From the NCBI RefSeq assembly GCF_028747785.1, contig NZ_CP118158.1:3224001-3288000 (forward strand): a stretch of DNA of 64,000 nt. The letters run 5' to 3'. Of the stretch, positions 10,187-36,349 are shown piece after piece. This DNA is from Halosimplex aquaticum (GTDB lineage: Archaea > Halobacteriota > Halobacteria > Halobacteriales > Haloarculaceae). Position 1 is the stretch's first letter; each line of letters opens with the position of its first letter. Position numbers and translations under genes: made by a program. The notes under the pieces were generated by a model. The model ran no database searches. It saw only the letters and a program-made list of their open reading frames with translations, and had not been told where the DNA came from.

Positions 10187-10349
10187 ATGCTCAATACAGC
10201 CCAGAGAGTGAACAATCGTGGTGGCGCGCGCTGTCGCGCGCTCTTATGCGCGCGACGAAGCCGCGTGAGGGATGAGCGAACGAGCGCAGCGAGTGAGCGA
10301 ATCGGCTGGGGAGGCGTGAGGCGCGGTGCTGTGCGGTTCCTGGCGGACT

Positions 10350-10456
10350 GAAAGGGCGAGGCGCGCTCGCGTCCAGTTCAGTCGCTTGAGCAGGCCCTAT
10401 CCGAGCGAAGCGAGGATAGGGCCTGCTCAGCGACCGCGAGCGCGCCGAGGGCTTTC
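10350..10456. repeat. Nested inverted-repeat element with GAAAGGG/GGCTTTC edges
   Basis: The outer arms 10350-10371 and 10435-10456 are imperfect reverse complements sharing CGCGAGCGCGCC and ending in GAAAGGG versus GGCTTTC. Inside, 10387-10402 and 10414-10429 form a perfect 16-bp stem (TGAGCAGGCCCTATCC) with an 11-base loop. The element looks like a structured RNA or a small non-autonomous dispersed repeat. I do not recognise a named family. Confidence 0.65.
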
Positions 10457-35870: not shown

Positions 35871-36349
35871 GGTGTGGTCGTCGTCGGGGTTCGTGGTGTA
35901 CGTTGTGGTCGGCGAGTGAGAGGCGGCGAATCCGAATGTATCCGTCCCGGTAGAGAGCGAACAGCGAGCGACCTGATCGTAGCGGAACTCGTGACCGCAA
36001 ACAGGGTGAAAGCCCCCGCTCGCTCCGGTCTCGCGACTCGCTGCGCGCTTCGGTCGCTCCGCTCCCGACAGTGCTTACTTCGTCGTGCTTCCCGGAGCGA
36101 GCGGCCCCCTTTCATTCCCACCCGCATAGACTGTTGGGAAGCCGATACGGGTGGGAATGAAAGGGGCGACCTGTTCGACGAAGCCCGGCGACGTAAGCAC
36201 GCAAACGAAGTGAGCGCGCGCAGCGAGCCGCGCGAGTCGAACAGGTCGGGGCTTTCACGCTGTTCTCGGCACCAGTCGAGTCCGCGGTCGCGGTCCAGTC
36301 GGCGGTCGTGGTAGCGGTGTCGCCACCGGCACAACCACCGGAACTCACG
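35871..36349. other. 479-bp gap containing a multi-stem inverted-repeat element
   Basis: There is no gene here. The first 130 bases include the upstream region of the small helical-protein gene. From 36000 to 36264 the DNA forms a nested set of long stems, described separately. From 36265 to 36349 nothing notable is seen beyond the 3' side of the MFS gene. Confidence 0.7.
36000..36264. repeat. 265-bp four-stem structured element with inverted arms
   Basis: Closing stem P1: 36000-36016 with 36248-36264 (17 bp, one mismatch; edges AACAGGGTGAAAGCCCC). P2: 36016-36028 with 36092-36104 (13 bp). P3: 36106-36124 with 36148-36166 (19 bp, perfect). P4: 36167-36179 with 36236-36248 (13 bp). P2, P3 and P4 abut with at most one or two unpaired bases, giving a four-way junction. 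The P2 and P4 arms contain inverted related loop sequences: CTCGCTGCGCGC (36038-36049) versus 36216-36227, and GTGCTTAC (36071-36078) versus 36193-36200. Confidence 0.75.

What the first reader, a model, noticed from the sequence alone, without database searches (positions are those of the whole stretch)
36000..36264. Four-stem element whose two side arms are inverted homologues with different but complementary stems
A 17-bp closing stem (edges AACAGGGTGAAAGCCCC / its complement) holds three abutting stems of 13, 19 and 13 bp with almost no unpaired bases between them. The loops of the first and third arm are related inverted copies (CTCGCTGCGCGC and GTGCTTAC blocks), yet their stems differ in sequence (CCGCTCGCTCCGG versus CGACCTGTTCGAC) while each stays perfectly paired. 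That is the pattern expected of selection on structure. It sits in a gene-free gap. It could be a structured RNA, a cruciform-forming DNA site or a mobile non-autonomous element.
Basis: partly seen in the sequence, partly recalled or inferred. Interest (0 to 1): 0.68.

Follow-up and report, generated by a model that had tools for sequence, protein, structure and literature searches.

The report
Invertible cloverleaf DNA repeats in haloarchaea
The four-stem sequence is one copy of a DNA repeat found between genes in most salt-loving archaea tested and in no other relatives tested; copies stay at fixed sites for long periods while flipping in place, swapping arms and changing both strands of their stems together, which makes it a natural test case for how folded DNA evolves.

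Summary
The element spans window 35995-36269 and is one of a dozen or so full copies in its Halosimplex genome. A covariance model of the arm hits 47 of 295 phylum genomes, all in the same order. Each copy has a conserved outer stem (P1), a conserved central hairpin (P3) and two oppositely oriented arms. Each arm is closed by a 13-bp stem that differs between copies but stays paired (12 of 13 pairs with two-sided changes; 0/500 shuffles).

Twenty-two loci are shared by 2-6 of the 8 Halosimplex species examined, so these are old residents and not recent insertions. At shared loci the element is often inverted: 14 direct and 14 inverted among clear pairs, for example 98.5% identical inverted against 65% direct. 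The centre inverts independently. Near-identical arms sit at different loci. One-sided stem mismatches stay constant with divergence while compensated pairs accumulate, and G-U pairs are not enriched.

This favours a DNA-level element remodelled by template switching, recombination and gene conversion over a one-strand RNA. It probably descends from a non-autonomous mobile element. No transposase, target duplication or clean insertion site was found; any host role is unknown. I found no earlier description in the open library.

The parts
35995..36016 (.). P1, 5' side (CCGCAAACAGGGTGAAAGCCCC): outer inverted repeat; family consensus ACCGCGAACAGCGTGAAAGCCCC
36016..36028 (.). Left arm variable stem, 5' side (CCGCTCGCTCCGG)
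   Evidence: covariation
36029..36091 (+). Left arm interior with conserved CTCGCTGCGC / GTGCTTAC..TTCG blocks and conserved unpaired T positions
36092..36104 (.). Left arm variable stem, 3' side (CCGGAGCGAGCGG)
36106..36124 (.). P3, 5' side (CCCCTTTCATTCCCACCCG): central inverted repeat
36125..36147 (.). Centre (CATAGACTG...AGCCGATA type), inverted relative to this copy in some orthologues
36148..36166 (.). P3, 3' side (CGGGTGGGAATGAAAGGGG)
36167..36179 (.). Right arm variable stem, 5' side (CGACCTGTTCGAC)
36180..36235 (-). Right arm interior, inverted homologue of the left arm interior
36236..36248 (.). Right arm variable stem, 3' side (GTCGAACAGGTCG)
36248..36269 (.). P1, 3' side (GGGGCTTTCACGCTGTTCTCGG)
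10221..10456 (-). Related composite elsewhere in the window: one arm (GAAAGCCC...GCCCTTTCAGTCC; model hit 10350-10456) followed by a conserved 'tail' module (CCTCCCCAGCCGATT...CTCATCCCTCACGCGG...GCGCGCCAC)
   Evidence: R1 hit 25 bits, E 0.00058; sequence; family; outer ends approximate

Best explanation
The element is a member of a haloarchaea-specific family of interspersed intergenic DNA repeats built as nested inverted repeats: P1 [ arm - P3 hairpin - inverted arm ] P1. Most likely the family descends from a non-autonomous mobile element that has long been resident at fixed sites, and its fold is kept at the DNA level. While it can fold as single-stranded DNA or a cruciform, replication template switching (or recombination between the inverted repeats) copies one stem strand onto the other. 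The same processes flip the P1-bounded element and the P3-bounded centre in place, and gene conversion between copies swaps arms and homogenises P1 and P3 within a genus. Shown here: the family, the fold's covariation, the shared loci, the in-place inversions, the arm exchange and the genus-specific P1/P3 variants. Inferred: the molecular mechanism (template switching, homologous recombination or a dedicated recombinase), the mobile ancestry, and that the conserved unpaired bases and P1/P3 sequence are recognised by a protein.
For: Family and range: many related places in the own genome, 10-30 matches in most same-genus genomes, 47/295 phylum genomes, all in the same order, named hits all haloarchaea. 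Pairing: 28 arms, S13 helix 100% paired, 12 of 13 pairs with two-sided changes, covariation score 0.634 against 0.173 shuffled, 0/500. Shared loci: 22 groups, 112 two-sided orthologous pairs, while intergenic flanks show no more than background identity (0.57). In-place inversion: L073/L075 98.5% inverted against 65.4% direct with gene flanks 92% in the same orientation, L094/L095 95.8% against 71.7%; 14 direct and 14 inverted in clear pairs; centre orientation independent of arm orientation (Fisher p 0.56); the right flank of L073/L075 aligns directly at 86% up to P1. Arm exchange: arms 94-100% identical at different loci, e.g. L072_R (G003) and L083_L (G004) 100% over 81 nt, L078_L and L085_R within one genome 96.4%, while no pair of whole elements at different loci exceeds 88.3%. 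Step-wise compensation: in arm pairs binned by interior identity, one-sided stem changes stay at about 0.43-0.48 per pair while two-sided changes rise from 1.3 to 5.0. No G.U excess: combined stems 97% Watson-Crick, 1.7% G.T or A.C, 1.2% other. Genus-specific variants: CTTTCATTC in Halosimplex (83 arms) against CTTTCAGTC elsewhere (53 of 65) (partly ascertained by the pattern used).
Against: No experiment or population data show template switching or inversion in these cells. The 13-bp arm stems rarely flip their interior (3 clear cases among 70 elements), which a purely generic template-switch process might not predict unless polarity is selected. Some orthologous elements are more conserved than the neighbouring genes (6 of 42 pairs) and the inner helix keeps mismatches such as G39.U77 in 28/28, which points to functional recognition beyond passive upkeep. 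No autonomous partner, target duplication or clean insertion site was found, so the mobile ancestry is an inference.
Confidence: 0.55

Rival explanations
1. Host-functional DNA site: the cruciform or hairpin is a binding or folding site used by the cell (REP/BIME-like: chromosome organisation, replication or repair protein), kept by selection on shape.
For: Kept at shared loci in up to 6 species; P1 and P3 about 95-96% identical between orthologues while flanks are unalignable; some elements more conserved than adjacent genes; conserved unpaired T and mismatch positions; orientation-independent as expected of a near-palindrome.
Against: Individual copies are dispensable: no element at the L006 locus in G004 and G006, remnants only in G001 and G007; no consistent gene context; no protein identified.
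Confidence: 0.22
2. Structured RNA: one strand is transcribed and the cloverleaf is the functional RNA.
For: Strong fold with covariation; intergenic; inner conserved G.U wobble at one position.
Against: Stem mismatches show no G.U excess; element orientation is random relative to flanking genes between species; no Rfam family; no fixed position relative to gene starts or ends.
Confidence: 0.1
3. Currently active MITE moved by a transposase in trans.
For: Multi-copy, short, non-coding, terminal inverted repeats; absent from some orthologous sites; in L213 two oppositely oriented arms flank about 0.85 kb with two small predicted genes.
Against: Most copies sit at shared old loci; no near-identical whole elements at different loci (best 88.3%); Y1 transposase (PF01797) not found in the own genome and no correlation with element presence; TnpB genes lie elsewhere; no target duplication seen.
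Confidence: 0.08
4. Dedicated site-specific inversion system: P1 and P3 are recombinase sites and inversion has a role such as switching.
For: Inversion between the P1 repeats and between the P3 repeats appears saturated and independent, while the 13-bp arm stems rarely flip; P1 and P3 are conserved in sequence as well as pairing.
Against: No recombinase identified; the flipped sequence is nearly symmetrical, carries no promoter or gene that I recognised, and sits next to unrelated genes; a generic length threshold (17-22 bp against 13 bp) explains the same contrast.
Confidence: 0.05

Closest known systems
MITEs, PATEs and SMRs of Haloquadratum walsbyi (PMC3119063)
   Same: Short, non-coding, multi-copy haloarchaeal repeats with inverted repeats or near-terminal palindromes; SMR-A are about 110 bp with prominent terminal inverted repeats, no target duplication, and sit inside palindromes of other elements; here arms of about 105 bp sit inside a larger palindrome.
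   Different: SMRs are reported as over 95% identical within a type; here whole elements at different loci reach 88% at most and stems differ in nearly every copy.
REP/BIME elements with RAYT (Y1) transposases
   Same: Interspersed intergenic palindromes at many sites.
   Different: Much larger and nested; PF01797 is absent from the own genome, which has a full set of elements.
Integron attC sites
   Same: Variable stem sequence with conserved fold and conserved unpaired bases (known from general knowledge, not tested).
   Different: Four-way element with two opposed arms, no integron integrase or cassette array seen; presence of an integrase was not searched.
Template-switch-maintained hairpins (PMC8794818) and inverted-repeat homogenisation with spacer inversion (PMC8604942)
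   Same: Compensated changes, arm homogenisation and inverted spacers are the reported footprints; all occur here.
   Different: Those are scattered single hairpins in rRNA or yeast genes; here a whole multi-copy family with nested repeats shows all three at saturating levels.
Structured RNA families (Rfam 15)
   Same: Covarying helices.
   Different: No match at curated thresholds; G.U pairs not enriched.

Membership tests
MITE | Short, non-coding, multi-copy, terminal inverted repeats | tested here: met
MITE | Target site duplication | tested here: inconclusive
   Flanks too diverged to define the pre-insertion site
MITE | Ends shared with an autonomous transposon | not tested
   No systematic search for P1 ends around transposase genes; L213 has arms around two small genes without a recognised transposase
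MITE | Insertion polymorphism / dispersal | tested here: inconclusive
   Absent at some orthologous sites, remnants at others, but most copies at shared loci
REP/BIME (RAYT-associated) | Y1 transposase (PF01797) in the genome | tested here: not met
   0 matches in the own genome at E 0.001
IS200/IS605-derived PATE | Near-terminal palindromes related to an IS605-type (TnpB) element | tested here: inconclusive
   TnpB matches (PF07282) in the own genome are at other places than the elements; no direct comparison of ends made
SMR of Haloquadratum | Sequence homology to HqIRS42/43/55/40/41 | not testable with these tools
   Sequences are in supplements that could not be opened; main text only
Structured RNA | Covarying helices with G.U tolerance | tested here: not met
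   Covariation met, but G.U not enriched
Structured RNA | Strand-specific transcript | not testable with these tools
   No RNA-seq available
Structured RNA | Match to a curated family | tested here: not met
   Rfam: none at gathering score in the window; only weak miRNA-model matches far below their cut-offs
attC recombination site | Integron integrase and cassette context | not tested
   Not searched
Invertible DNA (inverton) | Segment between inverted repeats found in both orientations at one locus | tested here: met
   Between species: 14 direct, 14 inverted; within one population not testable here
Invertible DNA (inverton) | Dedicated recombinase and a switched gene or promoter | not tested
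   No recombinase or promoter search made

The most novel reading that the evidence does not exclude
A new class of haloarchaeal DNA element that is recognised by its folded single-stranded shape: an unidentified haloarchaeal protein binds the arms (conserved unpaired T positions, free stem sequence, somewhat like attC), and the same activity flips the element and centre and moves arms between loci as cassettes.
Probability: 0.12. Interest if true: 0.85.

Novelty: new variant of a known kind. Interest (0 to 1): 0.6.

Why it matters
Compensatory changes in a stem are normally read as proof of selection on an RNA. This family offers many orthologous and paralogous copies in which compensated stem changes, in-place inversion and arm exchange all occur, with no G.U excess and no strand preference. 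It would let one measure how much covariation DNA-level processes produce on their own, and it warns against calling such repeats RNAs from covariation alone. It is also a large repeat family found across Halobacteria (other sampled orders of the phylum had none) that I could not find described, and it is worth annotating. If the conserved unpaired positions are a protein recognition surface, an unknown archaeal DNA-processing activity may be behind it.

Tried and rejected
First estimate that orthologous stems differ as much as random ones was wrong in part because it ignored in-place inversion; redone inversion-aware (mean 6.5 of 24 positions against 7.8 for non-orthologous pairs, so the stems still retain only a modest locus signal except in the closest pairs). 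Terminator or promoter role: gene ends and starts face the element about equally, 52 and 41. REP/RAYT: no PF01797 in the own genome. TnpB/IS605 neighbour: not adjacent. Phage carriage: no match in the phage collection; some partial matches on haloarchaeal plasmids. Literature: exact-sequence and topic searches found no description; subscription papers and supplements were not searchable. A shuffle control for the region 'outside' the element is invalid because masked N bases matched each other; one search replaces it. Rfam weak miRNA-model hits are ordinary long-hairpin noise.

Full report
1. What is in the window. The four-stem element is at 35995-36269. The left arm stem (13 bp), the P3 stem (19 bp) and the right arm stem (13 bp) are perfect. 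The fold is far more stable than shuffles on both strands (z -9.9 and -10.3), and these are the only perfect inverted repeats of 13 bp or more with a 20-90 nt loop in the 64-kb window. One covariance model built from arms (R1) finds both arms, on opposite strands, with 104.3 and 101.2 bits. The site lies between a 91-aa ORF without Pfam match and an MFS transporter.

2. A family. A blastn-type search of the own genome with the element gives 71 matches at E <= 1, among them a dozen or so near full-length places. In 59 relatives, 41 have matches at E <= 1e-6. The R1 model hits 47 of 295 genomes sampled from the phylum, and every hit genome is in the same family or order as the window; the listed genomes outside the order have none (at most 13 candidates are scored per genome, so counts are floors). 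A pattern scan of named genomes returned only haloarchaea, including Haloarcula, Natrinema, Natronococcus, Haladaptatus, Halorussus, Halonotius and Halobellus. Contig lengths identify G005 as Halosimplex salinum YPL4, so the genus is Halosimplex.

3. Anatomy. Copies read: [ACCGCGAACAGC]GTGAAAGCCCC - arm - GCCCCTTTCATTCCCACCC - centre - GGGTGGGAATGAAAGGGGC - inverted arm - GGGGCTTTCAC[GCTGTTCGCGGT]. Each arm has a 13-bp outer stem with free sequence, an inner helix with a usual mismatch, and conserved unpaired T positions. In 28 arms the outer stem is 100% paired with two-sided changes at 12 of 13 pairs, the remaining pair being an invariant T-A; the covariation score is 0.634 against 0.173 +/- 0.014 in shuffles. 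The 28 arms were chosen for having a paired stem, so the 100% figure is ascertained; the unbiased parse anchored only on P1 and P3 gives 97% Watson-Crick in both arms. Single-arm forms and an arm-plus-tail composite exist in many genera; a composite of the latter kind is also in this window at about 10221-10456, minus strand.

4. Fixed sites. Flanking genes place elements of 8 Halosimplex genomes in 22 orthologous groups of 2 to 6 species, with 112 two-sided matches. At the window locus six species carry an element. Elements can be lost: at the L006 locus G004 and G006 have none, and G001 and G007 have remnants. Mean identity in 42 length-matched orthologous pairs is 0.79 for the element in its better orientation, 0.88 for flanking coding DNA and 0.57 for the adjacent intergenic DNA, the last being about what unrelated flanks give. 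Six pairs are more conserved in the element than in the genes.

5. Inversion in place. With the genes held in one orientation, L073 (G003) and L075 (G004) are 98.5% identical when one element is inverted and 65.4% when it is not; L094 and L095 give 95.8% and 71.7%; L102 and L103 give 95.8% direct and 73.6% inverted. Of 28 pairs with a clear difference 14 are direct and 14 inverted. The centre orientation is independent of the arm order: same/direct 14, same/swapped 12, inverted/swapped 12, inverted/direct 9 (Fisher p 0.56). The pairs are not independent, since species recur in several groups, so these numbers show that both orientations are common and do not give a rate. For L073/L075 the right flank aligns directly up to P1, which puts that boundary at or near P1. 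Arm interiors flip rarely: 3 clear cases.

6. Arm exchange and concerted change. Arms 94-100% identical occur at different loci and in different positions, for example L072_R (G003) and L083_L (G004) at 100% over 81 nt and L078_L and L085_R inside one genome at 96.4%, while no two whole elements at different loci exceed 88.3%. The P3 variant is CATTCCC in Halosimplex and mostly CAGTCCC elsewhere (the outside set was found with a pattern that allows both letters).

7. How the stems change. Arm pairs grouped by identity of the arm interior show about 0.43-0.48 one-sided stem changes per pair in every band, while two-sided changes rise from 1.3 to 5.0 per pair. A steady small load of mismatches that are later matched on the other side is what either selection on pairing or template-switch repair would give. 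Stem positions change several times more often than interior positions, but the bands were defined on the interior, which exaggerates this ratio. Mismatches are not biased to G.U: of 1524 stem positions 10 are G.T, 16 A.C and 18 other. RNA-level selection would be expected to tolerate G.U on one strand.

8. Interpretation. The near-palindrome makes both strands and both orientations equivalent, and both are found. That, with the absence of a G.U excess and of any fixed relation to gene ends, makes a one-strand RNA unlikely. Published work shows that template switching between inverted repeats homogenises the arms, makes compensatory changes and inverts spacers (PMC8794818; PMC8604942). Gene conversion between copies would move arms as units and keep genus-specific P1 and P3 variants. 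These known processes explain most of the pattern. They do not explain why inner mismatches and unpaired T positions are conserved, why the arms keep opposite polarity, or why copies persist at the same sites. Those features suggest recognition by a protein, past or present, which I could not identify. The Haloquadratum SMR elements (PMC3119063) are the closest description: about 110 bp, terminal inverted repeats, no target duplication, inserted into palindromes, mobilisation unknown. Homology to them is untested.

9. Limits. No transcripts, no population data and no experiments were available. Orthology rests on blast of 870-bp flanks. The paper library holds open-access papers only. Element boundaries outside P1 are uncertain because weak conservation with a 3-base rhythm extends to about 45 bases on both sides.

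Noticed in passing
window 10221-10456 (minus strand): A second, related composite: one arm plus a conserved tail (CCTCCCCAGCCGATT...CTCATCCCTCACGCGG...hairpin...GCGCGCCAC). The same tail occurs at about ten places in the own genome and in other genera.
   Followed up: partly
Flanks of P1 in 66 elements, about 45 bases on each side (e.g. window 35950-35994 and 36270-36315): Weak conservation with a 3-base rhythm in phase with both ends; read inwards it gives an open frame such as TATADSIGTANS-VKAP with fewer stops than the other inward frames. Could be degenerate repeats of ACCGCG, CpG decay, or a coding remnant. Unexplained.
   Followed up: partly
L213:236-1384 (haloarchaeal MAG QH_6_64_20): Two oppositely oriented arms with P3 halves flank about 0.85 kb holding two small, possibly related membrane-protein ORFs (76 and 118 aa), as if the centre had been expanded by genes.
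   Followed up: partly
Arms of L092, L093, L099, L101, L097, L106: Arm loops carry extra chains of short perfect hairpins (for example GAGAGAGCTTCGCTCTCTC, GGGAAATCGTAGATTTCCC) that recur between arms, as if hairpins insert into hairpins.
   Followed up: no
L006 locus in G001 (L139): Remnant P1 hairpin without arms (AACAGCGTGAAAGCCCC-CGG-CCCCTTTCACGCTGTT), showing that arms can be lost cleanly between the CCCC blocks.
   Followed up: no
L002 locus in G005 (L127): The element site in this species holds about 1 kb of sequence that looks coding instead of the element.
   Followed up: no
L197, L220, L233: Single-arm elements that appear to sit at the same locus in two Natrinema species and a Haloterrigena, again with different stem sequences; judged by eye from flanking sequence.
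   Followed up: no
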